Source: Anaerolineae bacterium (lineage in GTDB: Bacteria > Chloroflexota > Anaerolineae > Anaerolineales > Villigracilaceae). Taken from it: a stretch of 33,728 bases of DNA. The stretch lies in contig JABGOQ010000009.1 of assembly GCA_018645405.1 (NCBI GenBank), forward strand, positions 1 to 33,728, in the 5' to 3' direction. Both the position numbers and the translations under genes were made by a program. The notes under the pieces are model-generated. The model had not been told where the DNA came from and made no database searches. It saw only the letters and a program-made list of their open reading frames with translations. Position 1 is the stretch's first letter; the number at the start of each line of letters is the position of its first letter. Positions 3,592 through 29,226 of the stretch are shown here, piece by piece.

Positions 3592-4629
3592 CTACGAAAG
3601 GATATCTTTCTCATACTTCCATTTTGCCAACATCTCACCCGCAACCTCATTAAAAATCTCAATATCACGCGCAGTGAAGATATTCTGCCAATTGCCTGCC
3701 TTCCCTTTGGGGAGGAAATCGGCAATGCTTTCATTACGTTTTTTTTGCCAAGTCTTATCGGGATTTGAAGATATTTCATCTTTTATAGCATCGTCAAGAT
3801 TATTTTCAACTTCAATGCCAAATAACGCCCAAACTTTTTTCATCTCTTCAAAAGGATTTGCCAGCAAATCTTCGTAGCGGAATTCGTAATACTTTTTGCC
3901 AAAGAGGCGCGTGCCTTCATCTGCGGTTTCGGTCAGATTTTTGACCCAGCCCTCGGTATTCACACGTAACCATTTTTCGGTGAAGATGGAGCGTTTGCCT
4001 GCCGTGAAGGGAGTTTGGTCTGCGCGCAAATCTTTGGCGATTTGCTTATCTTCTGCACTCATATATTTTGATTCTTCGACAAAATTCCGAAAACGCTGTG
4101 AGATGAGCGTATCCCGCCCATCTCGGACGATGTTGATCAGGTAGGCATCGGGATAAACGGCGTGCATCAATCTTACAGATTCGCCATCATTAAGGCTGTT
4201 GGGACTTTTATCGCCAACGATATGCTTTTCAATTCCCGCACGTTTAGCATCGCTTTCCATGATGTAGTCGGCGGCGGCACGCATCACCAGCGGAGATAAA
4301 TCTTCGCCACCATTCCAGCGATTGGATTTGCGTGTCAACCACTCTTCCATTTCGGCATTATTGACGAGGGATTTCAACAAAGGTTTGCGCGTGAAAAAAT
4401 GCGCCTGCCAATTGCAATGCACTTCAGGGTGCAGTCGAATTAGCCGTGCGAGAAGTGTTGTACCTGAGCGAGCATGACCAACGATGAAGAATTTTTCCAT
4501 CAGGAAAAAATCTTTGATCTCGGCAACCTGCTCTGCCGTCATCGGCGGGATCTCGGCGCGTGCGCCTGTTTGATTTTCGCCACGCAGCAAAATGCGGACG
4601 GCGGATTTTATGCGTTCAATTAATTCCAT
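3592..4629 (-). CDS. Sulfotransferase family protein (PAPS-dependent)
   Basis: About 345 residues. Residues 51-57 (GHARSGTT) form the 5'-phosphosulfate loop of PAPS-dependent sulfotransferases. Residues 164-180, with RDGRD and a following serine-containing helix, form the 3'-phosphate-binding motif. The rest (conserved Lys/Ser, a C-terminal KAGNW segment) fits the Sulfotransfer family. It would transfer sulfate from PAPS to a hydroxyl or amino group, presumably on the glycan or glycolipid made by this locus (inferred from context). The ATG at 4629 has GGAG at a proper distance; an in-frame ATG at 4659 has no ribosome site. The 125 bases upstream contain a TATTAT-like box but no convincing -35. 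The acceptor is unknown. Confidence 0.85.
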   Translation of the reverse strand: MELIERIKSAVRILLRGENQTGARAEIPPMTAEQVAEIKDFFLMEKFFIVGHARSGTTLLARLIRLHPEVHCNWQAHFFTRKPLLKSLVNNAEMEEWLTRKSNRWNGGEDLSPLVMRAAADYIMESDAKRAGIEKHIVGDKSPNSLNDGESVRLMHAVYPDAYLINIVRDGRDTLISQRFRNFVEESKYMSAEDKQIAKDLRADQTPFTAGKRSIFTEKWLRVNTEGWVKNLTETADEGTRLFGKKYYEFRYEDLLANPFEEMKKVWALFGIEVENNLDDAIKDEISSNPDKTWQKKRNESIADFLPKGKAGNWQNIFTARDIEIFNEVAGEMLAKWKYEKDILS

Positions 4630-4754
4630 ATCGCTCCAAAATTTGACAGACAAGGTCATTTTTATGTATAATAGAACTGCCAGCAGATGAAATTCGGCTC
4701 CATGCCGTGTGATTGTATGGTTACGACCGTCACAATCCTATATCTCTGGCTTTT

Positions 4755-5570
4755 TTATTTTCTGCTTTTTATAGCGTCTGCATTGAGGGGATTTCTTTTT
4801 GAATAGAAAACCCCATACCTAGAATTTTGTTTGTCATCAATATCATAAACAAGGCTGAAAGAGTCCCATAGATATTTTAGGTATCTATCTTCACCACGTT
4901 CATATAAGCGTTGCAAAGCCCATAAAAAATAATCCGCTGCTTGTAATCCAGGAGTTTTAGCAGGGTTTGTTGGGGTTATATTAATAGGCGCATCATTATT
5001 TATTGCATGCTTTTTGAAAAAGTTTCTTTTAGCAGCTTTTAACGCTGTAGATAATGCCGCAGTTCTATCTGATTTCCCGCGCGTAGCAAAACATATTTCG
5101 TATCCTTCATCTTTATGTAGACGCTCTTTAAATAAACGACGCACTAAATAATCATATAATTCGTTTGGATGATAACGATAAGAAGAATTACGCGCATTAC
5201 GTTGACGGACATATTCTAAAACCTTCAATTTATCTGTTACAACAGCAAAAAAACGCAACCCCGCAGTGGTTCGTAGAAGAGAATATACTTCTTTGCGAAC
5301 TTCTGGAATTTCATTTTTGGCATGAAAAGCTAATGCTGTTTTTCTTGCTTTAGGCTGTATTGATGGTATATCCATAAAATACGGGTCAGCCAGAATATTT
5401 TTTCTTAATTTTGTTAAATTCGCAGATAAACTGTCAGGATTTTCTATATCAAGAACACCCAAGATAAAAAAGCGTGAACATCCAGAATCTCCAATAATCA
5501 CGCGCCCTTTTTTGGAAAACAAGGTGCCATCTCCTGCTTCATCAACAAAATATCTACGATAATTTTTCAT
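4755..5570 (-). CDS. DUF3800 domain-containing protein
   Basis: 271 residues. The N-terminal YFVDEAGD (residues 7-14) matches the DUF3800 signature (Y-x-D-E-S/A-G). The C-terminal part has the conserved AADYFLWALQRLYE-type segment. Together these acidic positions suggest an RNase H-like fold with possible nuclease or metal-dependent activity (family-level inference, not proven). Members are common in phage, plasmid and defence islands. The gene is A+T-richer than its glycosyltransferase neighbours, which suggests transfer. Its ATG directly follows the TAA of the upstream glycosyltransferase, and its Shine-Dalgarno (GGAGGA) is made of that gene's last codons, so translation is coupled. No partner toxin or antitoxin is visible. 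Confidence 0.8.
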   Translation of the reverse strand: MKNYRRYFVDEAGDGTLFSKKGRVIIGDSGCSRFFILGVLDIENPDSLSANLTKLRKNILADPYFMDIPSIQPKARKTALAFHAKNEIPEVRKEVYSLLRTTAGLRFFAVVTDKLKVLEYVRQRNARNSSYRYHPNELYDYLVRRLFKERLHKDEGYEICFATRGKSDRTAALSTALKAAKRNFFKKHAINNDAPINITPTNPAKTPGLQAADYFLWALQRLYERGEDRYLKYLWDSFSLVYDIDDKQNSRYGVFYSKRNPLNADAIKSRK

Positions 5571-7007
5571 TTATCCTCCCAACACCTTCAAAATAAACTC
5601 TGCCGTGCGCTTGCCCGAACCCGCGTCCGTAAAAGAAATCTCCTGTTCAATGAAAGTCTTGCGTTCTTCCCTATCCAGGGAAATATCCTTCAAATAGGCG
5701 TTGACCACATCCTGCAACTCACCCGCAGTTTTTGCGACGCCCCCTGCGTTCGCTTCTCTAAAACGCAAATGCGTGGGCCAGCCACCAATTTTTTGCAATG
5801 CCAGCGAGTATTTTCCGGGCTTATTCCAGCCGCCGGGGGTGTCGATTACCGCCGCGACGATGGGGCGATTGTGCACAGCCGCTTCGACGACCATCGTCGA
5901 GTAGACCGTCACGAAAACATCTGAATACGCCATCATGGATGTTTTCTCGTCCATATCTTCGCCGCCATAATAGCCCAAAGAGCCACCTAATGCGACTGGA
6001 CGGACAACGTGAACGTTATCATATTTTTCTTCGAGCGCGTGGATTTGTTTTCTCTCTTCAGCAAAGATGGCGGGACGATCCTGAAAATGGCTGGGGTGCA
6101 GACGGATGAGCAGTTGTGCGTCTTCATCCAGTTGCCCCGAATCCACCATTTTGGCGAGTGCCTCTACATTCGGATAGTTGGGTGCAAAGTGAACAAAAGA
6201 ACACGCGTAAGAAATCAGCTTACGATTCGGATCAAGGTCGTGGAGCTTAAAATACTCATCTCTCGGCATCAACCACGTTTTGCGGAAATAACCATCGTAG
6301 GAGGGAATCCCGCCGATGTGAACATGGGATGCGTCCCAATCGGAGCCAAGTACCAATTCTTCCTTCTGCTTCTCAGACCAGCAAGTTGCCCAATCCATAA
6401 ATGCGCCGGGGATGGCATAGCTGCTGGGGTTGTCCCATCCGATGATGGCAGCCATTGACGGTACGTTGTTTTTCACTGCTTCGCGGAGCATATAACGGTC
6501 AACACGCCAACCGGCGGTCGATGCGATTACTAAATCCGGTTTATATTTTTCGAAGAGATCATCATAAATCCCGGGCGTGAATTTCATCTGCATCCGCGCG
6601 AGGAGTTTGCGTGCCCATTTGAAGGAGCGCAGGAAGAGAATGGCAATGGCGGAGGGGAGCCAAATCCCGATGCGGAATTTCCAGGTGTTCTCTTTGAGCA
6701 CTTCCCAGATGTGGCTGTCTTCGGCTTCGTTGTTGATGCGCCACGAGCCGCCGACGCGCCTGAGATAGATGAGCAGCGATTGCAGGCGCGGCTGGACGGT
6801 GCGGGCGTAGGTGTTGGCTTCTTTGAGTCGCAAACCCTCGAAGGTGAGACCGTCCTGCCCGAAACGCTCGGCGATGCGGTCTTTGGTCTCGTCGTCGGTG
6901 AAGAGGACGATTTCGGTGCCCGCGTCAAGTAGCGTTTGAACAACGTCGCTTTGCAGAAAGTAGATGAGTGCCATGCCGTGGTCGGCGATGATGAAGATGC
7001 GTTTCAT
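5571..7007 (-). CDS. GT-B glycosyltransferase or glycerophosphotransferase-like protein
   Basis: 478 residues. An N-terminal Rossmann half begins MKRIFIIADHG and contains KPDLVIASTAGW. A C-terminal half has LLIRLHPSHFQDRP and then DVFVTVYSTMVVEAAVHNRPIVA, the layout of CDP-glycerol glycerophosphotransferase or capsule-type GT-B enzymes, where the RxHP histidine and the downstream S/T-x-x-x-E segment bind the nucleotide. A hydrophobic/basic stretch near residues 110-140 (IGIWLPSAIAILFL, then KWARKLLAR) suggests membrane attachment. It probably adds a residue to the surface glycan on the cytoplasmic face. Donor and acceptor are unknown. Upstream lies the SLATT-RT insertion; downstream it is coupled to the DUF3800 gene. 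Confidence 0.75.
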   Translation of the reverse strand: MKRIFIIADHGMALIYFLQSDVVQTLLDAGTEIVLFTDDETKDRIAERFGQDGLTFEGLRLKEANTYARTVQPRLQSLLIYLRRVGGSWRINNEAEDSHIWEVLKENTWKFRIGIWLPSAIAILFLRSFKWARKLLARMQMKFTPGIYDDLFEKYKPDLVIASTAGWRVDRYMLREAVKNNVPSMAAIIGWDNPSSYAIPGAFMDWATCWSEKQKEELVLGSDWDASHVHIGGIPSYDGYFRKTWLMPRDEYFKLHDLDPNRKLISYACSFVHFAPNYPNVEALAKMVDSGQLDEDAQLLIRLHPSHFQDRPAIFAEERKQIHALEEKYDNVHVVRPVALGGSLGYYGGEDMDEKTSMMAYSDVFVTVYSTMVVEAAVHNRPIVAAVIDTPGGWNKPGKYSLALQKIGGWPTHLRFREANAGGVAKTAGELQDVVNAYLKDISLDREERKTFIEQEISFTDAGSGKRTAEFILKVLGG

Positions 7008-7106
7008 AAAATGTTGCCTATATAAATATTTTCTTCTAAAAATTAGAACTTTCTTGATAGCTTCTATTTTACCTTTATGTCGCTTATCAAATTACAGAAG
7101 AATATC

Positions 7107-8432
7107 TTAGGATGGTCTTGAAATATCCCTTTCCAATTCTTTCACTGTTTTGTAAATTCTGCGTCTAAACTCATATTCAATATCTTGCTGAGATATGTGC
7201 GGATGTTCGTATTTAAAAATATCGACAAGCATTTTGTGTTTTTCTGTAACTTCTAATCTGTCAAAATTTGGAATATAGGTTGTGTTACTTAGATTTTTAG
7301 TTATCTCGTGATATGCCTTTAGGAAAGTCTTTGGCTTAAACTCAGTTATATTAAATCTTTTCATCTGTTTTTTGACAAAGTAATCTAGCTCTCCTAACAG
7401 AGATAGATCATCTATTTGCGAAAAAAAGAACACCCACCCATATTTTGATTCATTAAAAACACATCCTGTGATGCGTAAATTTAATGCCCATTTGAGAAAA
7501 TCAATGTTTTTAGTTTCTGAGTATTTATAGTTTGTAAGAATTTTAATGAGAGATTCTCGAAAGCGATCTACAGTCTTCTTGCGAACAGTAATGTTGCTAT
7601 TATTAAAGTCATACCCCAAATAAGTGAAACCGTCAGTAATGTCAGTTATAGATGATTTTGAAGGGTTGTCAATTGAATGTAAATTTAATCCTAGATGCGA
7701 ACAATCTGCTGTAATTTCAGTTCGCATTTGATTAACATCACTTAGTTGGCAAAAAATTAATATGTCGTCAACATAACGGCAATATCGTATAGTAGAAATA
7801 CTTGAGTATTTATCGTCCATATCTAATAGGTAGATATTTGCCAAGATATTGGAAATGGACAAGCCTTGTGGCACACCTATATCGTTTTTTCTTGTATCTT
7901 TCTTATTCGGCCTTGCAACTGTTCTTTGAGAGACAGCATTTCTAATAAGATGAAGTAATTCTTTTTTCCTGATTTTCTTGCCGACTTTGTCCAACAGAAT
8001 ATCATGATCTATCAAAGGGTAAAAGTTCCTCACATCTAATCGTAGAACACTTTGATACAACCCTGACCTATAAGTTGCAATTACATCGTTAATAATTTTG
8101 TGTAAAAATGGGGTTTGTGCTCGAAAGAGTAAATCTAAAATTTGCGCAATTGCTTTTTGAGTGATTTTGTCTCTTATTGTCGGGATTGAGATGACACGAG
8201 GAGTTCGATTAGCGCCACGTGATAAGAGTTTTTCTCTATACTGAGAAAATTGATAGCTTCCATTGTGAGCTTTTCTATAGATAATATCTACATTTTCCCC
8301 AACTCGCTCTTGGAATAGTCGATTGCTTATTCGATCAACACCTCGTGCAGATTTATAACGAATATCACCATCATAAATATCTAACAGTTTTTTTTTAGTA
8401 AAGAAGTGCCTGAAGTATTTTGATGCCGACAT
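7107..8432 (-). CDS. Reverse transcriptase, SLATT-associated (defence-type RT)
   Basis: 441 residues with all core RT motifs: RVISIPTIRDKI (residues 79-90, fingers), LDVRNF (132-137, first catalytic Asp), GVPQGLSISNILANIYL (186-202), YVDD (220-223, catalytic Asp pair), a GLNLH region (248-252) and YLGYDF (271-276). No maturase or HNH domain follows. Instead there is a 160-residue C-terminal part with LNLRITGC (318-324) and a WVFFFSQI segment. This fits the family of stand-alone RTs in anti-phage systems; I cannot assign a UG/DRT class by eye. Its ATG lies 6 bases after the SLATT stop codon, with no clear ribosome site of its own, so it is translated from the SLATT-RT message. Retron-specific NAxxH and VTG motifs were not seen. 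Clearly A+T-richer than the glycan genes. Confidence 0.92.
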   Translation of the reverse strand: MSASKYFRHFFTKKKLLDIYDGDIRYKSARGVDRISNRLFQERVGENVDIIYRKAHNGSYQFSQYREKLLSRGANRTPRVISIPTIRDKITQKAIAQILDLLFRAQTPFLHKIINDVIATYRSGLYQSVLRLDVRNFYPLIDHDILLDKVGKKIRKKELLHLIRNAVSQRTVARPNKKDTRKNDIGVPQGLSISNILANIYLLDMDDKYSSISTIRYCRYVDDILIFCQLSDVNQMRTEITADCSHLGLNLHSIDNPSKSSITDITDGFTYLGYDFNNSNITVRKKTVDRFRESLIKILTNYKYSETKNIDFLKWALNLRITGCVFNESKYGWVFFFSQIDDLSLLGELDYFVKKQMKRFNITEFKPKTFLKAYHEITKNLSNTTYIPNFDRLEVTEKHKMLVDIFKYEHPHISQQDIEYEFRRRIYKTVKELERDISRPS

Positions 8433-8438
8433 AAAGGA

Positions 8439-8996
8439 TTACCAGAACCAAATTAACACAATAAATGGTATTGAAATGGCAAAGAGTATTGTTGTCAGCG
8501 CACCACGCCAAAACTTTTCCCAAAAATATTGTAAAGAATCTGCTCTGGTAAAAGACGGTAATGTTGTATCGGGATTATCTTTAAGAGAGTGCCTAAGACA
8601 TAGGTAATCATATTCAGAATGATTCTCAATATTAATAAGTAAACTCGTGTATTCTGCCTCAAGATTTTGAATCATCTCAATATCTTCAGATTTTTCAGCA
8701 CGCTTTGCTTTAGAATAAAGTTCATCAAGCTTGATGTAAAGATTACGCATCGCAATTGAACGTTCAGCATATTTCTGAGATGTTGCGTGTACCGATATAA
8801 CAAGTAGTGCAATGGAAGCAAAAGCAGAAACAAGATTAAGCTCCGCATCATTGTTTTGTAGATTCCATATTGACAAGGAAACTAAAGCTAACGAGTACAG
8901 CATCATCAACAATTGCGAGGCTTCATTGTATCGTTGCAATCGTCCTTCTGTGTTAATACGAACTTTTCTTGTAATCCAAATCTTGTCTGAAAGCAT
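8439..8996 (-). CDS. SLATT-domain membrane protein (putative pore-forming effector)
   Basis: 185 residues. Two closely spaced transmembrane helices (about 27-46 and 53-72) follow a basic N-terminus. Then comes a long helical region (75-130) with the polar motif NIENHSEYDYLCLRHSL, and a third hydrophobic helix at the very C-terminus (164-184). This is the SLATT architecture, closest to the SLATT_5 group known to be coupled with reverse transcriptases. SLATT proteins are predicted to open membrane pores and kill or arrest an infected cell when a partner senses invasion (family knowledge, not shown here). The ATG at 8996 has GAGGGAG upstream. It is the first gene after the structured RNA at 9036-9178, which probably belongs to the same system. 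Confidence 0.82.
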   Translation of the reverse strand: MLSDKIWITRKVRINTEGRLQRYNEASQLLMMLYSLALVSLSIWNLQNNDAELNLVSAFASIALLVISVHATSQKYAERSIAMRNLYIKLDELYSKAKRAEKSEDIEMIQNLEAEYTSLLINIENHSEYDYLCLRHSLKDNPDTTLPSFTRADSLQYFWEKFWRGALTTILFAISIPFIVLIWFW

Positions 8997-9035
8997 TTTA
9001 GAACTCCCTCATTGTTGACGTTGAAAAAGAAAGAG

Positions 9036-9178
9036 GAGACTCTTTGATTGAAATAAGATAAAATATCTCTCAAAGAGAGACTCATTGTGAGTTACCCCAC
9101 AACAACGGTATAACACCGTCTTTGCTAGTTGTTTTCCTGAAAATCATCCAGGAATCGTACTTTCGTACAAAGAGTCTC
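9036..9178 (-). ncRNA. Candidate structured RNA of the SLATT-RT system
   Basis: Read on the minus strand, GAGACTCTTTG (9178-9168) pairs perfectly with CAAAGAGTCTC (9046-9036), closing a 143-base element. Inside are consecutive hairpins. First GTAC-GAAA-GTAC (9168-9157, GNRA-type loop), then TTCCTG with CAGGAA (9154-9134). AACA/TGTT encloses ACGGT-GTTAT-ACCGT (9133-9101). Then ACTCA-CAA-TGAGT (9092-9080), CTCTC-TTT-GAGAG (9079-9067) and a partly competing AGATA-TTT-TATCT (9068-9056). The GAAA loop and location directly before SLATT-RT favour minus-strand transcription. Terminal pairing ahead of an RT gene is the plan of retron RNAs, and defence RTs often use upstream RNAs as templates. Whether this RNA is made or copied is inference. 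Confidence 0.65.
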
Positions 9179-9180
9179 GA

Positions 9181-9192
9181 GAGCATATTTTA
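9181..9192 (-). promoter_or_regulatory. Possible -10 element for the SLATT-RT transcript
   Basis: TAAAAT (9192-9187, minus strand) overlaps the stop codon of the upstream glycosyltransferase. Initiation 7-8 bases downstream would place the RNA 5' end at about 9180, almost exactly at the start of the 11-bp closing stem. No good -35 is visible (TGGATT at a spacing of 18), so this is a weak call. Confidence 0.25.
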
Positions 9193-10128
9193 CCCGTAAT
9201 ACCGCTTAAAAATCCAGTTATAGATCGCTAGTAAAATCTTCTTGATCGGCGCAAACTGCCAAATTGAAGACGATTTCTTCTCAACCTTCTCTTGCCCCAT
9301 CTCACCGCGTAAATAACCGAGCGTATTACTCAAATTCATCACCAGCGGATCAGAGACCATCAGGCGCAATAAACCAGTTTCATTCATCCGCTCATCAAGT
9401 TGGCGGACTTGTCCCATCGGGCGGGACATGTCAAAGGGCAGGAATTGTTGAAGCGTGGATTTATACGCCGTAAACTGCCAGTGCGATGCACCCGCGAGCG
9501 CGGTCACGCCATCATGGGTTATTTTCCAATCTCGCGTTTCATCATAAACTTTTACATTCTCTTCTTCAGTCTGCCCGAGCGAAAGATTGAACTCTAAGAA
9601 AGTCTCCCAAGGAATAAATTGCTCTTCTGCACAAGTCGCATTTTTCTGCGCCCATTCAACAGTGGAAGAATAAAATTTCGGCGGCGTGCGGAAAGGTCGC
9701 GCTGTGACCATGCCCACATTCGGGAAGGTTTCTAAAATCTCAACAGAGCGAGAGAGCCATTTGGGATAATAGAGAATATCGCTATCAGCATAGGCAATAA
9801 TTTCGCCTGGCGCGCCAGTCAAAATCATATTCCATGCGCCGCCCTTGCCGACATTTTTCTCGGAAAGTAGCAAGTACTGAATTCTTCCAGCTTCTTTTTC
9901 AGCTATCAGATAATCTCGTGCTTCAGCGCATGAGCCGTTGTCGAAGACCATCAAGTCGAAGGGTAACCCAGCATCTTTTCGCATGGATTCTAGACTCACT
10001 TTCAGCACATCCAGCCCTTCTTCGTAGAATCCGCTCAAAAAGGGGAGGTAAGTCAAGACAGCAACGGTCATCCGCTCTGGCTTGGCGACAGTTTTTACAG
10101 ATTTGGCGGGGTTTTGTCCTTTTCGCAT
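9190..10128 (-). CDS. Glycosyltransferase family 2-like protein
   Basis: About 312 residues from the ATG at 10128. The GT-A fold is visible: TVAVLTYLPF at the first strand, then LMVFDNGS (nucleotide-binding), then NVGKGGAWNMIL and AYADSDILYYPKWL, where DSD is the DxD metal site. These enzymes transfer a sugar from a nucleotide donor to a growing glycan in the cytoplasm. A longer reading to 10200 is open, but its first 24 residues come from an intergenic palindromic repeat (10167-10253), so the ATG before RKGQNP is preferred. A further in-frame ATG at 10071 is possible. The stop codon lies 12 bases before the SLATT-RT RNA. Sugar specificity unknown. Confidence 0.82.
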   Translation of the reverse strand: MRKGQNPAKSVKTVAKPERMTVAVLTYLPFLSGFYEEGLDVLKVSLESMRKDAGLPFDLMVFDNGSCAEARDYLIAEKEAGRIQYLLLSEKNVGKGGAWNMILTGAPGEIIAYADSDILYYPKWLSRSVEILETFPNVGMVTARPFRTPPKFYSSTVEWAQKNATCAEEQFIPWETFLEFNLSLGQTEEENVKVYDETRDWKITHDGVTALAGASHWQFTAYKSTLQQFLPFDMSRPMGQVRQLDERMNETGLLRLMVSDPLVMNLSNTLGYLRGEMGQEKVEKKSSSIWQFAPIKKILLAIYNWIFKRYYG

Positions 10129-10166
10129 TTTTTTGTTCCAGGTTAAAGGTTTAATGTTGCAAGTTT

Positions 10167-10253
10167 TTATCACGAATGATACGAATTTGGCGAATGGCAC
10201 GAATATTTTTAATTATTCGTGTCGTTTGCTCCATTCGAAAATATTCGTGATAA
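10167..10253. repeat. Palindromic repeat, CACGAAT/ATTCGTG type
   Basis: TTATCACGAAT (10167-10177) is matched by ATTCGTGATAA (10243-10253). Inside, CGAATGG (10191-10197) pairs with CCATTCG (10231-10237), and CACGAATA (10198-10205) with TATTCGTG (10214-10221). Nearly the whole element folds on itself. It supplies the last codons and the stop codon of the gene ending at 10209. Confidence 0.8.
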
Positions 10254-11138
10254 TTGTTTTTTCCATCGTTTCGGGCGCACAACTTTTTCTAATCTGTCTT
10301 CTGGCAAAAAGAAAAATATCTTTCGCAAAAAGAGTTCGATGCCGCGCCAAAATCGCCCGCTTGTGGGGCGGGGGCGCAGGATTTTACCATCTCTTAGCTG
10401 AAAATTGCTGTCCACAATCGTATATCGCGTCTCTGCCACGCCGCCCGCCATCGCCACATTTTTCTTCGTCTCCGGCGCGCTATAGTGGATCTCCCCGTCC
10501 GCCAAATGCCGATAATCGTGGTTCTGATGCACAATCATCACATCCTGCGTGGCATCAATCACATCCCATTTTGATGCACGCGCTTTGTAAATAAACCAAT
10601 TATCCCAGCCAGCGCGCCCAATCGCAAAATCAGGGATGTCGGTGTAACAAGTACGCGGGAAGATGAAATAATCGCTCCCGGCTGGACGATGGAGTTCACC
10701 TTCTTGCCGAACTTTTTCTTTTAAGTGAGATTGCCAATCAGCACCGAATTCCATTGGATGCGTGATGTCTAAATCCCAGCGTTGACCGAGTAAAACAAAC
10801 TTCTCAGCGGATCGCTCGCATATTCGGCTTGCTTCCGTTATGTCATCATTGAGGATGATATCAGCATTGACGATTCCCAGCAGGGGGCTATCGCTATGCT
10901 CGCGTGCCAACTCAAGCATGGAGGAGATTAACGGCGTCCCCTTCTCGTTCACATCCACGTTTGGGAGGTGAAGCACGCCCAAACCACGGGCGGATTCGGC
11001 TTCTCCTTCTTCATCCCCGAGCAGAATTACTTTTACATCATCCAATTTAGTCCACGATTCAATCGCGTTCCGCTGGATGATGTTGATATGCGGGTCGGTG
11101 AAGGGTTTGGGGGAGGAGAATAAAGTAAGCAGTGTCAT
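10209..11138 (-). CDS. Glycosyltransferase-like protein (GT-A fold)
   Basis: About 309 residues from the ATG at 11138. The start MTLLTLFSSPKPF and the segment LLGIVNADIILNDD (an acidic NAD where GT-A enzymes have DxD) suggest a nucleotide-sugar transferase. A conserved-looking DYFIFPRTCY and GRAGWDNWFIYKAR follow, typical of uncharacterised glycosyltransferases of glycan loci. An open extension to 11177 is encoded by an intergenic repeat and was left out. The last residues (about SNGANDTNN) are also repeat-derived, so the gene has lost or exchanged its original end. It lies between the SpsF gene and the GT2 gene in the same direction. Sugar and linkage unknown; family assignment moderate. Confidence 0.65.
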   Translation of the reverse strand: MTLLTLFSSPKPFTDPHINIIQRNAIESWTKLDDVKVILLGDEEGEAESARGLGVLHLPNVDVNEKGTPLISSMLELAREHSDSPLLGIVNADIILNDDITEASRICERSAEKFVLLGQRWDLDITHPMEFGADWQSHLKEKVRQEGELHRPAGSDYFIFPRTCYTDIPDFAIGRAGWDNWFIYKARASKWDVIDATQDVMIVHQNHDYRHLADGEIHYSAPETKKNVAMAGGVAETRYTIVDSNFQLRDGKILRPRPTSGRFWRGIELFLRKIFFFLPEDRLEKVVRPKRWKKQLSRIFSNGANDTNN

Positions 11139-11147
11139 AGTTTGTAG

Positions 11148-11214
11148 CCCTCGTAGTAAGGGCTTTAGCCCTTTCATGGCGCAAAGCTAATCGCTGACGC
11201 GATTACTACGAGGG
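11148..11214. repeat. Palindromic repeat, CTCGTAGTAA/TTACTACGAG type
   Basis: A perfect 12-base terminal inverted repeat (CCCTCGTAGTAA at 11148-11159, TTACTACGAGGG at 11203-11214) encloses two hairpins, AAGGGCT/AGCCCTT and AATCGC-TGAC-GCGATT. It fills the gap between two glycan genes. The form, terminal repeats around inner palindromes and no gene, is that of a REP/MITE-like element. Confidence 0.85.
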
Positions 11215-11220
11215 GGTGAG

Positions 11221-12009
11221 CTATTCCATCAAAGTTTTATGATGCACATCGGCATTAATCTTGGCCAATTCTGGCTCTTTTTCGAGCAAAGCAAGAATAT
11301 CGTACCAGCCAAAGTTATCATTATCAAAGCGAGCGGAAATTTGGCGGATAAATTCTAAATCTTCAGGGGTATCTACCGTCCAGCGGAGGTTGCCGTAATC
11401 GGAGAGGTGGTTGAGGAGGGCAATTTTGAAACCGCGCGGGGAAGTACCAGTGTGCAGTAATCGGTTTTCAGTATTCAGTTTTGTGCCTTCGTAAAGATAG
11501 GGCATGACGTGTTCGCGTTGGTGTTTTTCAGTGGCATTTTGGCAAGCATTTTCAAGCGCAGCGAAGGTACAGACTTCGGTATCCAAGCCGATGGGGAATG
11601 TGCGTCCCATTGGCGGTGGAAGACGGTTGGCTACAAAATTAAATTTTCCTTCGCGCTGCACACGGATGGTCTCATCGACAATATTTGGGTCAAGCACAGG
11701 GCAATCAGCCGTTAAACGAACAATAACATCAGCATCATATTCTTTTGCGGCTTGATAGTAGCGGTCTAAAACATCGTGCAGGCTGCCGCGCGTAAAATTA
11801 TAGCCACGCTCTGCACAAAACTCTGCAATGGGGTCGTCGCTGGGATCGGTGGTGGTGGCGAGGACAACATCGTCCACGAGTTTGGCGCGCTTGGCTCGCT
11901 CGATGACGTGGGCGAGCATCGGCTCTCCGGCGATGTCGAGGAGGACTTTCCCCGGCAGGCGGGAGGAGGACATGCGGGCTTGGATGATGGCGATTGTTCG
12001 AGGTTTCAT
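11221..12009 (-). CDS. spsF: SpsF-type cytidylyltransferase (acylneuraminate cytidylyltransferase family)
   Basis: 262 residues. The N-terminal IIQARMSSSRLPGKVL (residues 8-23) is the nucleotide-triphosphate binding loop of CMP-sugar synthetases of the SpsF/NeuA/KdsB group. RLTADCPVLDP (98-108) carries the acidic metal site. WTVDTPEDLEFI near the C-terminus is typical of SpsF. It should activate an acidic or nonulosonic sugar with CTP to give a CMP-sugar donor. In this window it pairs with the NeuB-family synthase at 16055-17119 (the spsE/spsF relationship). No Shine-Dalgarno is visible before the ATG; the upstream DNA is a repeat. The actual sugar activated is inference. Confidence 0.85.
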   Translation of the reverse strand: MKPRTIAIIQARMSSSRLPGKVLLDIAGEPMLAHVIERAKRAKLVDDVVLATTTDPSDDPIAEFCAERGYNFTRGSLHDVLDRYYQAAKEYDADVIVRLTADCPVLDPNIVDETIRVQREGKFNFVANRLPPPMGRTFPIGLDTEVCTFAALENACQNATEKHQREHVMPYLYEGTKLNTENRLLHTGTSPRGFKIALLNHLSDYGNLRWTVDTPEDLEFIRQISARFDNDNFGWYDILALLEKEPELAKINADVHHKTLME

Positions 12010-12020
12010 AGAATACTTTT

Positions 12021-12135
12021 AAACACAAAGGGCATGAAGAGACACAAAGGGCATGAAGAGATACGAAGGTTTTGGGAAACCGTATTGCGTAATGCGTATT
12101 TCGTAAAACCATTACGCAATACTAAATACGCATTA
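12021..12135. repeat. Composite repeat: 19-bp tandem duplication plus TACGCAAT palindrome
   Basis: ACACAAAGGGCATGAAGAG occurs twice in tandem (12023-12041 and 12042-12060), a half-copy of the CACAAAG repeat family. Next to it ATTGCGTAATG (12084-12094) pairs with CATTACGCAAT (12110-12120), followed by another copy of the TACGCATTA unit. The stop codon of the DUF4910 gene (12133-12135) is inside the second element. Confidence 0.8.
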
Positions 12136-17119: not shown

Positions 17120-17132
17120 TTTGACCTCCGGT

Positions 17133-17220
17133 CAGGAATCAGTGGATCAGGAATTAGTAAATCAGGAAACGGGTAATTAGGGAACAGCACTGATTCCTGA
17201 TTTACTGGTTTACTGTTCCC
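17133..17220. repeat. Palindromic repeat, CAGGAATCAGT type
   Basis: CAGGAATCAGTG (17133-17144) is exactly inverted at CACTGATTCCTG (17188-17199), and GGGAACAG (17180-17187) at CTGTTCCC (17213-17220). The element spans the gap between the SDR gene and the NeuB-family gene and runs into the SDR stop codon at 17210. Confidence 0.85.
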
Positions 17221-18136
17221 TAACTTGTTGATAACCCCGCATTTTCTGTGGATAACGCTGTTGGTATTGTGTATAAAACTTCGCCAAACCAGTGGAGAAG
17301 TTGGGGATTTCACGCCCCAAAGCTGTGGATAGCTTGTTGACAGATAGCCTTAAATTTGTGGATCGTTTCGCTTTTAAGCCTGCATCGGATACGGAAATGG
17401 GATTGATTAAGCTCGCGTCGAATCCAAATTGACGGGCGATGGATTGCCCAAATTCATATTTCGTAATCGCTCGTGACCCGACGACGTGATACATGCCCGA
17501 TAAACTTTTGGATAGCATCCCGACCAGAGTATCTGCCAAATCGCCAACAAACATTGGGCAGAAGTAAACATCGTCGAAGCCGTTGACATGTTGAGCCGCC
17601 CCTAAATTGTTGACAAAAAACTCAGCCAAAGAACGAGTGCCGCTTAAACTCCAGCCAAAGAAATTGACGCGAGCAATTGCGGCATTGGGGTTTGCTTCGA
17701 GGACGGCAATCTCGCCATCCAGTTTTGTTTGGGCATAAACGCCGAGGGGATTTGGCTCGTCTTTTTCGTTATAAATGCCTTCTTTTGTGCCATCGAAAAC
17801 CGCGTCGGTGGAGATGTGCAAAAACTGAATCTCTCTCTCGGCACAGAGTTTTGCTAGACGACCGGGCAAAACGGCGTTAAGGGTCGAGGCAGAGTCGGGG
17901 TGCAGCTCGCACGCGTCCACAAGAGCGTTTGCGGCACAGTGAATTACGGCATCTGGTTTGGATTCAGATAAAAGTTTGGGGAGGGCATCCAAGTCCAATA
18001 AATCCAATTTAATTAAATCAAAGGGTGTATGCGCCAATTTAGAGCGATCTACGCCGATAATTTGGTGTTGGGTGTGCATCTGGAGACTGAGATTCAAACC
18101 CAAAAGACCAGATGCGCCAGTGACGAGAATTTTCAT
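17210..18136 (-). CDS. RfbD-like SDR sugar-nucleotide reductase
   Basis: 308 residues. GASGLLG (7-13) is the NAD(P) site, and ST at 109-110 with Y134-x3-K138 (YAQTK) is the extended-SDR catalytic set. Overall it resembles dTDP-4-dehydrorhamnose reductases (RfbD/RmlD). It would reduce a 4-keto nucleotide sugar. Since it directly follows pseB, its substrate may be the 4-keto-6-deoxy-HexNAc made by PseB rather than a rhamnose intermediate; no RmlABC is present in the window (inference). GAAGGA lies before the ATG at 18136. The last few residues are encoded by a palindromic repeat. Confidence 0.78.
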   Translation of the reverse strand: MKILVTGASGLLGLNLSLQMHTQHQIIGVDRSKLAHTPFDLIKLDLLDLDALPKLLSESKPDAVIHCAANALVDACELHPDSASTLNAVLPGRLAKLCAEREIQFLHISTDAVFDGTKEGIYNEKDEPNPLGVYAQTKLDGEIAVLEANPNAAIARVNFFGWSLSGTRSLAEFFVNNLGAAQHVNGFDDVYFCPMFVGDLADTLVGMLSKSLSGMYHVVGSRAITKYEFGQSIARQFGFDASLINPISVSDAGLKAKRSTNLRLSVNKLSTALGREIPNFSTGLAKFYTQYQQRYPQKMRGYQQVREQ

Positions 18137-20930: not shown

Positions 20931-22508
20931 TTACCAGTTTATCTTCTCTCCAGCCAAATAGCCGAGGGTTTTCTCAAATTTCTTCAACCCTTCTTCGCTC
21001 ATCACCTTTTCTAGCGACCAGATTTCTTCATCTTCCCAGAAGTGCTGGACGTGCCAAGGATAAGGTTGCGGATACTCGAAGAAAAATCTATAAGCATAAG
21101 TCCACGCGGATTCGACATCTTCGTGGGAGGGGGCATAATCTTTGGGGACGGAGATGACTTTTTCCAGGGTCTCAAAGTATTCATCCCACGAATCTGGTTC
21201 GAGGGTGAAGCCTTTGCCGCGATAATGGGTCTGCCCGGTGACGATGACGGGGAGTCCGATCATTGCCATTTCCATGCCGACTGTGGTGGTGAAGACTAAT
21301 CCGATATCGGCGGTGTTGACGAGGTCGTAGGTGTTAATTTTGGCATCTGCTCGGAGGATGTGGATGTTTTTTGGCAAGTCGGGGAATTTCTCTGTGAGAA
21401 TATCGTAAACCGATAACCCCCAGCCAAGCCCTTCGCCGGGGTGAACACGAAGAACGAATTGAACATCGTCTCGTTTGGCAAAGAATTCGATGGTGCGAGA
21501 CATCCATTCTGTCATGCTTTTGCTGAAGGTGTGTCTGCCGAGAGTCAGGCTGTCGCCGAGGACGTTGGCAGGAAGCAGGACGAGGGGGCGATCATCCAAG
21601 CCAAGTTCTTCACGGACTTTGGAGGCTCCCTGCGACTCAATATTTTGCCATGTGCGAGCAAAATTCTCCCATAATCCGCCACCTTGACGAGCGGAGAAGA
21701 ATTCTTTGACATGATCCCATTCTTTTTCTGTGAGGGGCGTATCTTTTTTTGCATTCCAAAGATCAGAAGTGTCTTGGCGCATCACGTCTTCGTTTTGTGC
21801 CATCCAAATACGTTCGCTTTGTTCGCCAAATTCGTAAGTCGTGACGGGGATATTGAGATATTTAGCCACTTTGTAGGTCATCCCAAATTCAAGGATGGAT
21901 CCGTTGGGAAGGGCGATTGCATCAAAATGTTCACGCCGCAACAGAGCTAATATAAGGGAAGCATGCCTCAGGTCACGCGCGTAGCGGCGGGTATAGAGGG
22001 CGGAATCCACATCTATTTCTTCGTGGAGGAGGCTGTATTGCGTATCTCGATATGCGGACGCATCCAATTGCGATGAAAGCTCATCGGGGAGAGAATCCGC
22101 TTGAGGGGCAGATAAAAGCGACATCGTCCGCACCATCCCAGAGAGGGGTTTGAGGGCATCTTTGAGATATAAATCTTGGCGACGGAGGTCGAAACGGTTG
22201 TCGACTTTTTTCCAGTGGGCGTGGGGGAGGTAGGCGAGGGTGACATCGTGACCGAGCGCGGAGAGGGCGAGGGCGGTCATGGCGGAATGCTCGACCCAAT
22301 AGCGGAGCATGGTGAAAATAAGCACGCGTTTACCCGTTTTGGGGCGTTGTGCGGCGCATGCCTGCTCCACCCAGCGCGGGAGAGCTGTTTTGAGTTTGTC
22401 GGCAGAGTATCCGCCAACGGGAGGTTTTCCTCCTCGACAGAGGAGCCAATATAGTTCGGCTGTGAGGGGGAGGTCGCCGAGGATGTCTTTAATTTTAGAT
22501 TTGTTCAT
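20931..22508 (-). CDS. Capsule-type glycosyltransferase (GT-B)
   Basis: 525 residues. A first Rossmann half holds RVLIFTMLRYWVEHSAM and FDAIALPNGS. A second half has LVLLPANVLGDSLT, QFVLRVHPGEGL (RxHP donor motif) and DIGLVFTTTVGMEMAMIGLPVIVTG followed by HYRGKGFT. This resembles capsule polysaccharide synthesis and KpsS/LipB-like proteins and the C-terminal half of CDP-glycerol transferases. It probably elongates or primes the exported glycan, which fits its position next to Wzt. The ATG at 22508 follows a repeat and has no clear ribosome site. Sugar unknown. Confidence 0.75.
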   Translation of the reverse strand: MNKSKIKDILGDLPLTAELYWLLCRGGKPPVGGYSADKLKTALPRWVEQACAAQRPKTGKRVLIFTMLRYWVEHSAMTALALSALGHDVTLAYLPHAHWKKVDNRFDLRRQDLYLKDALKPLSGMVRTMSLLSAPQADSLPDELSSQLDASAYRDTQYSLLHEEIDVDSALYTRRYARDLRHASLILALLRREHFDAIALPNGSILEFGMTYKVAKYLNIPVTTYEFGEQSERIWMAQNEDVMRQDTSDLWNAKKDTPLTEKEWDHVKEFFSARQGGGLWENFARTWQNIESQGASKVREELGLDDRPLVLLPANVLGDSLTLGRHTFSKSMTEWMSRTIEFFAKRDDVQFVLRVHPGEGLGWGLSVYDILTEKFPDLPKNIHILRADAKINTYDLVNTADIGLVFTTTVGMEMAMIGLPVIVTGQTHYRGKGFTLEPDSWDEYFETLEKVISVPKDYAPSHEDVESAWTYAYRFFFEYPQPYPWHVQHFWEDEEIWSLEKVMSEEGLKKFEKTLGYLAGEKINW

Positions 22509-22521
22509 ATTTTATGTTTTC

Positions 22522-22581
22522 TTACCACAACGACACAAAGTACACGAAGATTCCTTTGTGCTCTCTGTGTCTTTGTGGTTA
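22522..22581. repeat. Palindromic repeat, CCACAACGACACAAAG type
   Basis: TTACCACAACGACACAAAG is inverted as CTTTGTGGTTA, with CCTTTGTG/CACGAAG words between. Same family as 13462-13544 and 19198-19256. Lies between wzt and the capsule glycosyltransferase. Confidence 0.85.
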
Positions 22582-22587
22582 AAAGCC

Positions 22588-23856
22588 CTATTCGACCTTC
22601 TCAATCTTCCAATCCAAGCGCGGTCTAATGCCGCCTGGTCGCGGCTCATCCCAGTGCATACCGGGCGCGCCGGCGGGGTCAACATTGAACTCCAGCGTGC
22701 GCTCTTCGGCAAAATAGCGGCGGATGCGGTACGAACTCGCGTTCACGCCCAGCGTATATCGCCCCGTGTTCAGCAAATCGGGCGGCACCACGCAGCGGCT
22801 CACAAATCGCCCCGCCTTTCGCTCAGTATGCGTATTAAACATTTTCGGATCATCGGTATCGAAGGATGTGAAAACCGGCTCGCCACGCGCCGTATAAAGA
22901 TAGATCCCGACTCGTAAACCGGTGATTGGCTCATCAAGTTGATAATCAAACTCGAGCGTAAATTCTTCAGTGGATCGGATTGTCTCGACGACATTTCCGC
23001 GATTATCGACAATGCGGATCGCGCGTGGCGTGAACGGGCTTGCCGTTACCGGGACATCTTCCGGGCCCCAAACTTTTTCCCCTGCCCGCGCGTGCCCAGC
23101 CGAGAGATAATAGTCAACAGCTTCGGATGTAGGCGCACGCATAATCATTTTCCCCTTCTCCAAAACAATCGCTTCATCTGTTAATCGCAAAACAGCGGAC
23201 ATATTATGGCTCACGAAAAGCACCGTCCGCCCCGCTTCGGCGACATCATTCATCTTGCCGATACATTTGCGCTGAAATTCCGCATCACCCACCGCGAGAA
23301 CTTCATCCACAACCAAAATCTCTGGCTCAAGATGTGCAGCGACAGCAAAAGCCAGCCGCAGATACATCCCCGATGAATAGCGTTTGACGGGGGTGTCGAT
23401 AAATTTCTCCACCTCCGAAAAAGCGACAATTTCGTCAAATTTGCGCGTAATTTCAGAGCGGTGCATCCCCAAAATTGCACCGTTGAGATAGAGATTCTCG
23501 CGCCCAGTTAATTCAGGATGAAACCCCGTCCCAACTTCGAGGAGCGAGCCGACTCGTCCGCGCAGTTGCATCATCCCTTCGGTGGGTTCGACCACACGAG
23601 AGAGCAACTTGAGCAGGGTACTTTTCCCCGCGCCATTATGCCCGACAATGCCCAAAACCTGACCTTGCTCCACGTCAAAGGAAATATCTTTGACCGCCCA
23701 GATGATATTGTCAGGCTTTTTGGCTTCAAGGCGTTTTTGGCGCGAGAAAGTATTAGCGATGGTGTCGCGCAGGGTGTTATACCCGCCACGATTCTGCGGG
23801 GCTGTGCCAATTTTATATTTTTTGCCGAGGTTTTCGACGTGGACTGCTATTGTCAT
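22588..23856 (-). CDS. wzt: ABC transporter ATP-binding protein, Wzt-type, with glycan-recognition domain
   Basis: 422 residues. Walker A GHNGAGKST (72-80), signature YSSGM (160-164) and Walker B LVVDE (181-185) form the ATPase. EVGTGFHPELTGRENLYLNG (107-126) is diagnostic of polysaccharide and teichoic-acid exporters. From about residue 270 a beta-rich C-terminal domain follows (Wzt_C), which in O-antigen systems recognises the cap at the non-reducing end of the chain. With the permease at 25127-25984 it would flip the finished lipid-linked glycan across the membrane. A class V aminotransferase gene now separates the two exporter genes, which is unusual. Confidence 0.93.
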   Translation of the reverse strand: MTIAVHVENLGKKYKIGTAPQNRGGYNTLRDTIANTFSRQKRLEAKKPDNIIWAVKDISFDVEQGQVLGIVGHNGAGKSTLLKLLSRVVEPTEGMMQLRGRVGSLLEVGTGFHPELTGRENLYLNGAILGMHRSEITRKFDEIVAFSEVEKFIDTPVKRYSSGMYLRLAFAVAAHLEPEILVVDEVLAVGDAEFQRKCIGKMNDVAEAGRTVLFVSHNMSAVLRLTDEAIVLEKGKMIMRAPTSEAVDYYLSAGHARAGEKVWGPEDVPVTASPFTPRAIRIVDNRGNVVETIRSTEEFTLEFDYQLDEPITGLRVGIYLYTARGEPVFTSFDTDDPKMFNTHTERKAGRFVSRCVVPPDLLNTGRYTLGVNASSYRIRRYFAEERTLEFNVDPAGAPGMHWDEPRPGGIRPRLDWKIEKVE

Positions 23857-29144: not shown

Positions 29145-29226
29145 TTACCACAAAGAGCACAAAGAACACAAAGTAAAAGCAAAAAAAGGTTTTTCCTTCG
29201 TGGTTCTTCGTGTCCTTTGTGGTTAA
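29145..29226. repeat. Palindromic repeat, ACCACAAAGAGCACAAAG type
   Basis: TTACCACAAAGAGCACAAAG on the left and TGTCCTTTGTGGTTAA on the right form a long imperfect stem. The stop codon of the regulator gene (29223-29225) is inside it. Being a long hairpin right after the regulator, it may reduce read-through into the glycan genes. Confidence 0.85.

What the first reader, a model, noticed from the sequence alone, without database searches (positions are those of the whole stretch)
9036..9178. Retron-like structured RNA directly upstream of a SLATT-reverse transcriptase pair
Seen in sequence: a perfect 11-bp inverted repeat (GAGACTCTTTG at 9178-9168 on the minus strand, CAAAGAGTCTC at 9046-9036) closes 143 bases that hold at least five hairpins, including GTAC-GAAA-GTAC with a GNRA loop that is only sensible on the strand of the SLATT-RT genes. 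Known: retrons have a terminal a1/a2 pairing around a folded RNA just before the RT, and several defence RTs (DRT types) use upstream ncRNAs as templates. Inference: this is the template or cofactor RNA of a SLATT-RT anti-phage system. I know of no described ncRNA for SLATT-coupled RTs, so it may be new.
Basis: partly seen in the sequence, partly recalled or inferred. Interest (0 to 1): 0.88.

Follow-up and report, generated by a model that had tools for sequence, protein, structure and literature searches.

The report
Template RNA of DRT10 phage-defence system
This is the template RNA of a recently described bacterial anti-phage system (DRT10) whose reverse transcriptase makes telomere-like repeat DNA; it appears to sit in a Chloroflexota bacterium and is a good but ordinary new example of a known system.

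Summary
In detail: a perfect 11-bp stem closes 143 nt with five hairpins on the strand of the SLATT and RT genes. It is very probably the template RNA of this SLATT-RT system, but the system is neither a retron nor undescribed. The RT is UG17 (PADLOC 2.5e-152), the neighbour SLATT_5; UG17 + SLATT + upstream ncRNA is DRT10, described in October 2025 (PMC12632851): self-primed, telomerase-like synthesis of tandem-repeat cDNA from an A-B-A' template. Tests here: the RNA is conserved in a relative (UBA2317, RT 69% identical), where 4 changed helix pairs still pair, one meets a gap, none breaks; a covariance model of ten other DRT10 RNAs ranks UBA2317's RNA first (E 0.013), but the window's own copy only weakly (E 3.9); the loop after the last hairpin reads UUAU-C-UUAU in the family register (alone p 0.18), predicting (GATAA)n, as does UBA2317's; the RT has YVDD and ends in Ser, the published priming position. 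The low-GC cassette sits between two glycosyltransferase-type genes that lie 10 nt apart in a same-genus genome. New member of a known kind; transcription, cDNA and defence are untested.

The parts
9036..9178 (-). DRT10 template ncRNA, predicted structured core (143 nt)
   Evidence: Perfect closing stem, five hairpins; homologue in UBA2317 at L001:2257-2401; family RNAs lie at the same position upstream of SLATT. True transcript ends not known.
9168..9178 (-). closing stem, 5' arm GAGACTCTTTG
   Evidence: Pairs with 9036-9046; A-U to G-C double change at its fourth pair in UBA2317
9036..9046 (-). closing stem, 3' arm CAAAGAGTCTC
   Evidence: As above
9157..9168 (-). hairpin 1 (GTAC-GAAA-GTAC)
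   Evidence: loop is AAAA in UBA2317
9134..9154 (-). hairpin 2
   Evidence: one G-C to G-U change in UBA2317
9120..9133 (-). single-stranded linker with CUAGC (CUAUC in UBA2317); at this place 18 other DRT10 RNAs have CUAAU (13), CUGAU (3), CUAAA (1), CUUAU (1)
9105..9119 (-). hairpin 3
9085..9102 (-). hairpin 4; one U-A to C-G double change in UBA2317; its innermost modelled pair meets a gap there
9065..9081 (-). hairpin 5 (GTCTCTC-TTT-GAGAGAT), by position the template-boundary hairpin (SL5 of the published Eco3 RNA)
   Evidence: directly 5' of the template loop, as in L040/L090, which carry the Eco3DRT10 template
9047..9064 (-). template loop AUUUUAUCUUAUUUCAAU
9053..9061 (-). predicted A-B-A': UUAU (9061-9058), C (9057), UUAU (9056-9053); predicted cDNA (GATAA)n
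   Evidence: Starts 3 nt after hairpin 5, the register with the longest mean repeat over 25 loops; the window's repeat alone is within chance (p 0.18)
8439..8996 (-). SLATT_5 protein, 185 aa; 2-TM effector domain by family description
   Evidence: PADLOC RTasSLATT 5.1e-42; Pfam SLATT_5 4.6e-32; NCBIfam NF033631 131.8 bits, cut-off 60
7107..8432 (-). UG17 (DRT10) reverse transcriptase, 441 aa
   Evidence: PADLOC RT_UG17 2.5e-152, 505.6 bits, profile 1-427 of 429; AlphaFold2 model mean pLDDT 89.4
7764..7775 (-). codons of the catalytic YVDD (residues 220-223)
   Evidence: invariant in A2 and A10
7110..7112 (-). codon of C-terminal Ser441, the position of the published priming serine (S456 of 456 aa in Eco3DRT10)
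   Evidence: last residue S in 42, Y in 7, K in 3 of 52 distinct complete RTs, the window's not counted; priming role from PMC12632851

Best explanation
This is the template RNA of a DRT10 (UG17-SLATT) anti-phage system. The RNA folds into one long stem carrying five hairpins. Its last loop, bounded on the 5' side by hairpin 5, exposes an A-B-A' sequence, most likely UUAU-C-UUAU. The RT starts cDNA on its own C-terminal Ser441, copies A-B up to the hairpin boundary, releases, re-anneals the cDNA end to A' and repeats, making long single-stranded (GATAA)n. That DNA is thought to control the SLATT membrane effector, which would kill or stall infected cells. Shown here: gene families, RNA conservation with compensatory changes, architecture, position, a template-like repeat, a conserved C-terminal residue. 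Inferred from the published family: priming, repeat synthesis, defence. Proposed by the publishing authors and left open by them: control of SLATT by the cDNA.
For: RT best match RT_UG17, 505.6 bits; next a generic RT model, 131.3, and Drt3a, 125.6. SLATT best match RTasSLATT. Published definition: UG17 + SLATT + ncRNA upstream of SLATT = DRT10 (PMC12632851). Nearest relative L001 (RT 69% identical) has the RNA at the same place; of 37 pairs 2 changed on both sides, 2 on one side, 1 meets a gap, 0 are broken; paired positions differ at 6 of 73, unpaired at 29 of 69, P = 3.8e-6. Model R1 (window + L001) over 73 sources (486,816 bases): best hits outside those two loci are L017 (E 0.047) and L015/L016/L043 (E 0.8), upstream of SLATT. 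Model R3 (ten other DRT10 RNAs): L001's RNA is best of 41,054 bases, E 0.013, with helices, CUA and GUU in register; 8 of its 9 hits in 55 further sources lie at the pre-SLATT position. L040 and L090 carry the Eco3DRT10 A-B-A' exactly, 3 nt after the last hairpin; in that register 25 loops have mean A length 3.2 against 1.99 shuffled, 0 of 2000 shuffles as high. C-terminal Ser.
Against: The window RNA itself scores only 8.3 bits, E 3.9, rank 16 of 33 with R3, and is absent from the hits of R2 (21 listed) and of R3 with default filters. R3 and R2 also miss many true DRT10 loci, so the models are weak for diverged members. The window's A-B-A' alone is within chance (p 0.18) and a 10-nt reading is as long; the loops were bounded by eye. 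No sigma-70-like promoter was found upstream. Ser441 lies in the only stretch of the model with pLDDT below 50 (438-441), so its closeness to the active site is not shown. There are no transcript, cDNA or phage data for this locus.
Confidence: 0.94

Rival explanations
1. Same system (DRT10), but the repeat unit is 10 nt: A = AUUU (or UAUUU counting the last base of hairpin 5), A' = the same, so the cDNA is (AGATAAAATA)n or a rotation of it.
For: At offset 0 the window loop has a 4-nt repeat at distance 10, as long as the one at offset 3; units of 9-11 nt are the commonest among the 25 loops.
Against: Offset 0 is not the family register (mean A length 1.84 at offset 0 against 3.2 at offset 3). 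L001 has no repeat at offset 0 but shares UUAUCUUAU.
Confidence: 0.25
2. It is a retron: the 11-bp stem is a1/a2 and the RNA is an msr-msd.
For: Terminal stem around a folded RNA next to an RT gene.
Against: RT is UG17, 505.6 bits; best retron model retron_St85_RT 43.9 bits against a cut-off of 235. The RNA follows the multi-hairpin DRT10 plan with a short template loop.
Confidence: 0.01
3. It is a DRT9 system (upstream ncRNA, sometimes with SLATT) making poly-dA.
For: DRT9 also has an upstream ncRNA and occasional SLATT (PMC12483538 passages); DRT9 structures are among the Foldseek matches (ranks 8-12 and 16).
Against: Drt9 profile 58.2 bits against UG17 505.6; the loop's longest U run is 4 nt, and the repeat candidate contains A and C.
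Confidence: 0.02
4. The 5' arm GAGACTC switches between the 3' arm and an internal GAGTCTC next to hairpin 5, so the RNA is a conformational switch that hides or frees the template.
For: In the window the two pairings have ensemble probabilities near 0.69 and 0.31, and the MFE takes the internal one.
Against: In L001 the closing stem has probability 0.97-1.00 for its first 7 pairs and no alternative above 0.1 is listed for them; the double change keeps the closing stem.
Confidence: 0.04
5. The hairpins are a terminator or attenuator of the glycosyltransferase operon, not a template RNA.
For: Two terminator-like sites were called inside (9105-9082, 9081-9065); the RNA starts 11 nt after the glycosyltransferase stop codon.
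Against: Such RNAs go with SLATT-UG17 in unrelated contexts: plasmids, IMG/VR viral contigs and E. coli; in L001 another gene lies between the glycosyltransferase and the RNA.
Confidence: 0.02

Closest known systems
DRT10 / UG17-SLATT, Eco1-3DRT10 (PMC12632851)
   Same: UG17 RT, SLATT gene, ncRNA directly upstream of SLATT, central stem with smaller hairpins, template loop after the last hairpin, A-B-A' pattern, C-terminal Ser (Tyr in Eco1), YVDD
   Different: Probably a Chloroflexota host (nearest locus is Anaerolineales); five small hairpins where the Eco3 RNA has four; predicted unit 5 nt with A longer than B, against 9 nt in Eco3; AUU before the template where 21 of 25 loops have GUU
DRT9 / UG28 (PMC12483538, passages; PMC12632851)
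   Same: Upstream structured ncRNA, occasional SLATT, protein priming, repetitive cDNA
   Different: Poly-U template and internal priming tyrosines in DRT9; RT profile score far lower here (58.2 against 505.6 bits)
DRT3 (Drt3a) (PMC13174585, passages)
   Same: ncRNA-templated short repeats (ACACAC template); Drt3a is the best-scoring other named DRT profile (125.6 bits)
   Different: Works with a second RT, Drt3b; none of the five window proteins scanned around the RNA other than the UG17 RT matches an RT
Retrons
   Same: Terminal stem around a structured RNA beside an RT gene
   Different: RT family and RNA plan do not match
Telomerase (works like; not a member)
   Same: Template with an alignment repeat and a 5' boundary element, in the published account of DRT10
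   Different: RT of 441 aa matching UG17, not TERT; DRT10 primes on itself, telomerase on chromosome ends (PMC12632851)

Membership tests
DRT10 (UG17) | RT of the UG17 clade | tested here: met
   PADLOC RT_UG17 2.5e-152, 505.6 bits; 31-69% identity to 7 other such RTs in A2
DRT10 (UG17) | Adjacent SLATT protein | tested here: met
   RTasSLATT 5.1e-42, SLATT_5 4.6e-32
DRT10 (UG17) | ncRNA upstream of SLATT with a central stem and smaller hairpins | tested here: met
   Structure and position; linked to family RNAs through L001 (E 0.013) and from R1 to L017/L015; the direct R3 score of the window is weak (E 3.9)
DRT10 (UG17) | A-B-A' pattern in the loop after the last hairpin | tested here: met
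   UUAU-C-UUAU in the family register; met in form, weak in statistics (p 0.18 alone; L001 p 0.017)
DRT10 (UG17) | C-terminal priming Ser (or Tyr) | tested here: met
   Ser441 is the last residue; that it primes was not tested
DRT10 (UG17) | RNA is transcribed and bound by the RT | not testable with these tools
   Needs RIP-seq
DRT10 (UG17) | Tandem-repeat ssDNA product and phage defence | not testable with these tools
   Needs cDNA sequencing and plaque assays
Retron | Retron-type RT | tested here: not met
   Best retron model 43.9 bits, cut-off 235; UG17 505.6 bits
Retron | msr-msd RNA with branching G and msDNA | tested here: inconclusive
   No Rfam match at gathering score in the window; RNA follows the DRT10 plan instead; msDNA not testable
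DRT9 (UG28) | UG28 RT and poly-U template | tested here: not met
   Drt9 58.2 bits against UG17 505.6; longest U run in loop 4 nt

The most novel reading that the evidence does not exclude
A DRT10 sub-type with a 5-nt unit in which A is longer than B (UUAU-C-UUAU; CUUAU-CUUAU in UBA2317; units of 5 also read in L045 and L014, so 4 of 25 loops). It would make (GATAA)n, a product kept the same in two relatives although the repeat sits one base further along in one of them, so the product sequence itself may be under selection. Unit lengths would then run from 1 nt (DRT9) and 2 nt (Drt3a) through 5 nt here to 9-11 nt, as one continuum of the same template-reset mechanism.
Probability: 0.35. Interest if true: 0.45.

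Novelty: new member of a known kind. Interest (0 to 1): 0.3.

Why it matters
It extends a telomerase-like anti-phage system, shown experimentally for three E. coli homologues (and, for cDNA, six further synthesised systems; PMC12632851), to what is probably a Chloroflexota host, where it looks rare (1 of 396 sampled genomes of the class, the window's own; UBA2317, outside that sample, is another). It gives a concrete, easily tested product prediction, (GATAA)n. A natural 5-nt unit would show how short the unit can be in nature. It does not open a new kind of system.

Tried and rejected
Retron: rejected on RT family. DRT9: rejected on RT score and loop. Conserved conformational switch of the 5' arm: rejected because L001 has only the closed form. 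GNRA loop as a strand argument: the loop is AAAA in L001. Rfam: no match at gathering scores; in 8900-9400 only three sub-threshold snoRNA-type matches. Promoter scan: none in 8950-9350 of the window; one minus-strand match in L001, not on the RNA's strand. By eye a TATAAT lies 6 nt before the RNA in L001 and a TAAAAT 8 nt before it in the window; without a -35 match this proves nothing.

A MAFFT alignment of 11 DRT10 RNAs (A6) misaligned the closing stem and was set aside; A7 (5 of those 11) was used for R2 and A9 (10 sequences) for R3. A9 was chosen by R2 score (E <= 0.15), so it leaves out RNAs that R2 scores poorly, and it was fitted to the structure on which pairs were then counted. A8, which held chance matches, was not used. 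R2 with default filters over 39 sources gave 9 hits, all at the RNA position, 5 of them its own parents; the other 30 sources, mostly DRT10 loci, gave none. R3 over 55 sources (25 of them non-UG17 RT loci) gave 9 hits, E 1.9e-10 to 9.3; DRT10 loci such as L034, L040, L045, L063, L089 and L090 and the window and L001 themselves gave none there.

The automatic stem finder picked wrong outer stems for the window and several loci (e.g. L004, L011, L055, L089, L019) and found none for L045 and L052; these were read by eye, and the 25 loops were bounded by eye, so that test is not blind. 64 loci were examined; loops were not read for near-duplicates (e.g. L025, L036, L038, L039, L090), for loci cut before the RNA, and for L007, L008, L009, L050 and L052, where the loop was not clearly bounded. 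L063 does not follow the A-B-A' rule (A of 1 nt), and L010, L013, L012, L017, L014 and L006 do so with only 2 nt; all are counted.

In 'distinct' means not letter-identical; many of the 52 are near-identical E. coli-type RTs. The three K-ending RTs are L040 (reading ends off-family) and L058/L059 (no SLATT-sized ORF or motif upstream); L043, counted among the S, also ends off-family, and two of the seven Y are L056/L057, which also lack SLATT upstream. The SLATT motif search also missed L009, L090, L018, L032, L063 and loci cut at the contig end. The 100-nt upstream comparison was too gapped to use. Genome contigs gave one locus; a single-sequence viral scan gave none. Phage records: 55 records, none covering 80% of the RT. 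The second structure prediction was not used.

Host: the window's genome has no name here; the Chloroflexota label rests on UBA2317 having the nearest RT and the same flanking genes; no kinship between the two genomes was told.

Full report
OBSERVATION. The minus strand carries GAGACTCTTTG at 9178-9168 and CAAAGAGTCTC at 9046-9036, closing 143 nt with five hairpins. The fold of 9026-9188 is more stable than 200 of 200 dinucleotide shuffles, z = -5.06. Across the window it is strong but not unique: rank 15 of 841 stretches for the overlapping stretch at 9066 (the exact stretch is not among the 15 listed), and one of 28 perfect 11-mer inverted repeats against a mean of 2.0 in 40 shuffles. Structure alone would not have settled it; the context and relatives do.

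GENES. 8996-8439 (minus) encodes a SLATT_5 protein (Pfam 4.6e-32; PADLOC RTasSLATT 5.1e-42). 8432-7107 (minus) encodes a reverse transcriptase whose best PADLOC match is RT_UG17, E 2.5e-152, 505.6 bits over profile positions 1-427 of 429; Drt3a has 125.6 bits and Drt9 58.2. None of its five NCBIfam matches reaches its cut-off; the best retron model has 43.9 bits against 235. An AlphaFold2 model from 27 sequences has mean pLDDT 89.4; its best solved matches are group II intron-type RTs (6ar1, G2L4), then DRT9, DGR and DRT2 RTs. None of 35 PDB sequence hits was named UG17 or DRT10.

WHAT IS KNOWN. PMC12632851 (read: text parts 1-3 of 8, discussion, legends part 1 of 2) names UG17 + SLATT + a ncRNA upstream of SLATT 'DRT10'. 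It reports a 137-nt ncRNA, defence in E. coli, cDNA started on the RT's C-terminal serine (S456 of 456 aa; Tyr in Eco1), and tandem repeats from a template written A-B-A' in a loop that follows hairpin SL5; the end of the cDNA re-anneals to A' and copying repeats, as in telomerase. How the cDNA gives immunity is unresolved there; the authors propose that it controls SLATT. PMC8934634 (passages) reported earlier that 76-82% of UG17 RTs lie near SLATT_5. PMC12483538 (passages) notes that sbcB (ExoI) is essential in E. coli strains expressing UG17.

RELATIVES. One locus in genome contigs, L001 (Anaerolineales bacterium UBA2317, Chloroflexota), has an RT 69% identical and the RNA at L001:2257-2401. 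Between the two RNAs the 37 pairs show 2 changes on both sides (fourth pair of the closing stem A-U to G-C; hairpin 4 U-A to C-G), 2 on one side, 1 gap and no broken pair. Paired positions differ at 6 of 73, unpaired at 29 of 69, Fisher P = 3.8e-6. The RNA is 82.9% identical, the RT gene 71.9%, the SLATT gene 74.8%. Further loci: six plasmid loci (L004-L009), two E. coli loci (L089, L090) and 79 IMG/VR loci, the best kept of 135. Of these, L010-L063 (54) were treated as candidate UG17 loci by score and the other 25 (E 1e-17 to 4e-10) as other RTs. Four of the 54 (L056-L059) have neither a SLATT motif nor a SLATT-sized ORF upstream.

COVARIANCE. R1, built from the window and L001 only, was run on 73 sources (486,816 bases). 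Twelve hits: the two parents, their two antisense strands, L017 (E 0.047), L015/L016/L043 (one family, E 0.8), and four chance-like hits (E 5.4 or more). The L017 and L015-type hits lie directly upstream of SLATT. R2 was built from five other DRT10 RNAs and extended to R3 with ten. On R3's alignment 92.2% of 334 cells pair and 29 of 34 pairs have changes on both sides; shuffled means 65.4% and 16.1; sliding the partner by 1-3 columns gives 38.8-44.3% paired. That alignment was fitted to the structure, which favours it. Over the window and L001 with filters off, R2 puts L001's RNA second (10.1 bits, E 1.4) and does not list the window's; R3 puts L001's RNA first (18.2 bits, E 0.013, helices, CUA linker and GUU in register), while the window's RNA at 9035-9178 gets 8.3 bits, E 3.9, rank 16 of 33. 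In 55 sources with default filters R3 gave 9 hits, 8 at the pre-SLATT position, and missed other DRT10 loci. So membership of the window RNA rests on its close homology to L001 plus context and plan, not on its own score. The linker between hairpins 2 and 3 has CUAAU in 13 of 18 other DRT10 RNAs, CUGAU in 3, CUAAA in 1, CUUAU in 1; CUAGC in the window and CUAUC in L001.

TEMPLATE. L040 and L090 contain the Eco3DRT10 A-B-A' letter for letter, 3 nt after the last hairpin. Reading 25 loops in that register, the mean length of A repeated downstream is 3.2 nt against 1.99 in shuffles, 0 of 2000 as high; without the window and L001 3.04 against 1.95, also 0 of 2000. 18 of 25 have A of 3 nt or more; offsets 1 and 2 are nearly as good (18 and 15 of 25), offset 0 is not (5 of 25). 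The three bases before A are GUU in 21 of 25 loops. The window loop AUUUUAUCUUAUUUCAAU reads UUAU-C-UUAU: unit UUAUC, cDNA (GATAA)n. L001's loop GUUCUUAUCUUAUCCUUU reads CUUAU-CUUAU: the same repeat in another phase. Shuffle p-values are 0.18 and 0.017. A 10-nt unit in the window (AUUU at offset 0) cannot be excluded.

PRIMING RESIDUE AND CATALYSIS. The RT ends in Ser441; the last residue is S in 42, Y in 7, K in 3 of 52 distinct complete RTs other than the window's (L040 and L043 end off-family, and L056-L059 lack SLATT). YVDD is present. The model gives no information on the tail (pLDDT below 50 for 438-441).

SETTING. GC is 30-36% in the four 500-base windows of 7000-9000, against 46-56% in 9 of the 12 others of 4000-12000 (35%, 41% and 44% in the rest). 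The cassette lies between a glycosyltransferase (10200-9190) and a glycerophosphotransferase-like gene (7007-5571), as in L001, where one more gene, methyltransferase-like by eye, also lies there. Of 11 loci from other unnamed relatives 5 showed matches to both flanking genes: in L096 (same genus) these lie 10 nt apart, in L093, L094, L098 and L102 468-924 nt apart, with no match to the cassette. This fits a variable slot. In a sample of the class 1 of 396 genomes has a UG17 RT at E <= 1e-60, the window's own; UBA2317, outside that sample, has one too. 1 of 60 relatives has the RNA by DNA search, again the own genome.

VERDICT. A real, conserved RNA, very probably the template RNA of a new member of DRT10; not a retron and not a new kind of system. 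The most interesting open point is the predicted 5-nt unit. I found no paper holding both 'Chloroflexota' and 'defense-associated reverse transcriptase' in the held library, which does not show that no such member has been listed in supplementary tables.

Noticed in passing
L001:2431-3000: The SLATT gene of UBA2317 has an in-frame stop right after the conserved ENH motif, while its RNA and RT look intact: a broken effector or a sequence error.
   Followed up: partly
L090:1512-2840: In E. coli strain 510016 an IS1 element splits the SLATT gene of a DRT10 locus that carries the Eco3-type template.
   Followed up: no
window 4755-5570 (-): DUF3800 protein (PADLOC DUF3800_VII 4.3e-14) on a low-GC stretch (35% in 5000-5499), just beyond the next gene and without a match in the relatives' loci examined: possibly a second acquired gene.
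   Followed up: no
window 29146-29308 and 22426-22668: Strongest folding stretches of the window (best z -6.9 and -6.6, both strands low), stronger than the finding itself.
   Followed up: no
window 10167-10253, 12082-12135, 17132-17223: Clusters of perfect 11-bp inverted repeats; the window has 28 such matches against 2.0 expected.
   Followed up: no
L093, L094, L096, L098, L102: The slot between the two glycosyltransferase-type genes varies in relatives: 10 nt in L096, 468-924 nt of other content in the rest.
   Followed up: partly
L056-L059: RTs picked up by the UG17 alignment that lack SLATT upstream and end in ...DEG...Y or ...YPK; perhaps another UG group.
   Followed up: no
window 9053-9061: The strand (TTATC)n, complementary to the predicted cDNA, has no stop codon in any frame (read by eye); it would matter only if a second strand were made and transcribed.
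   Followed up: no
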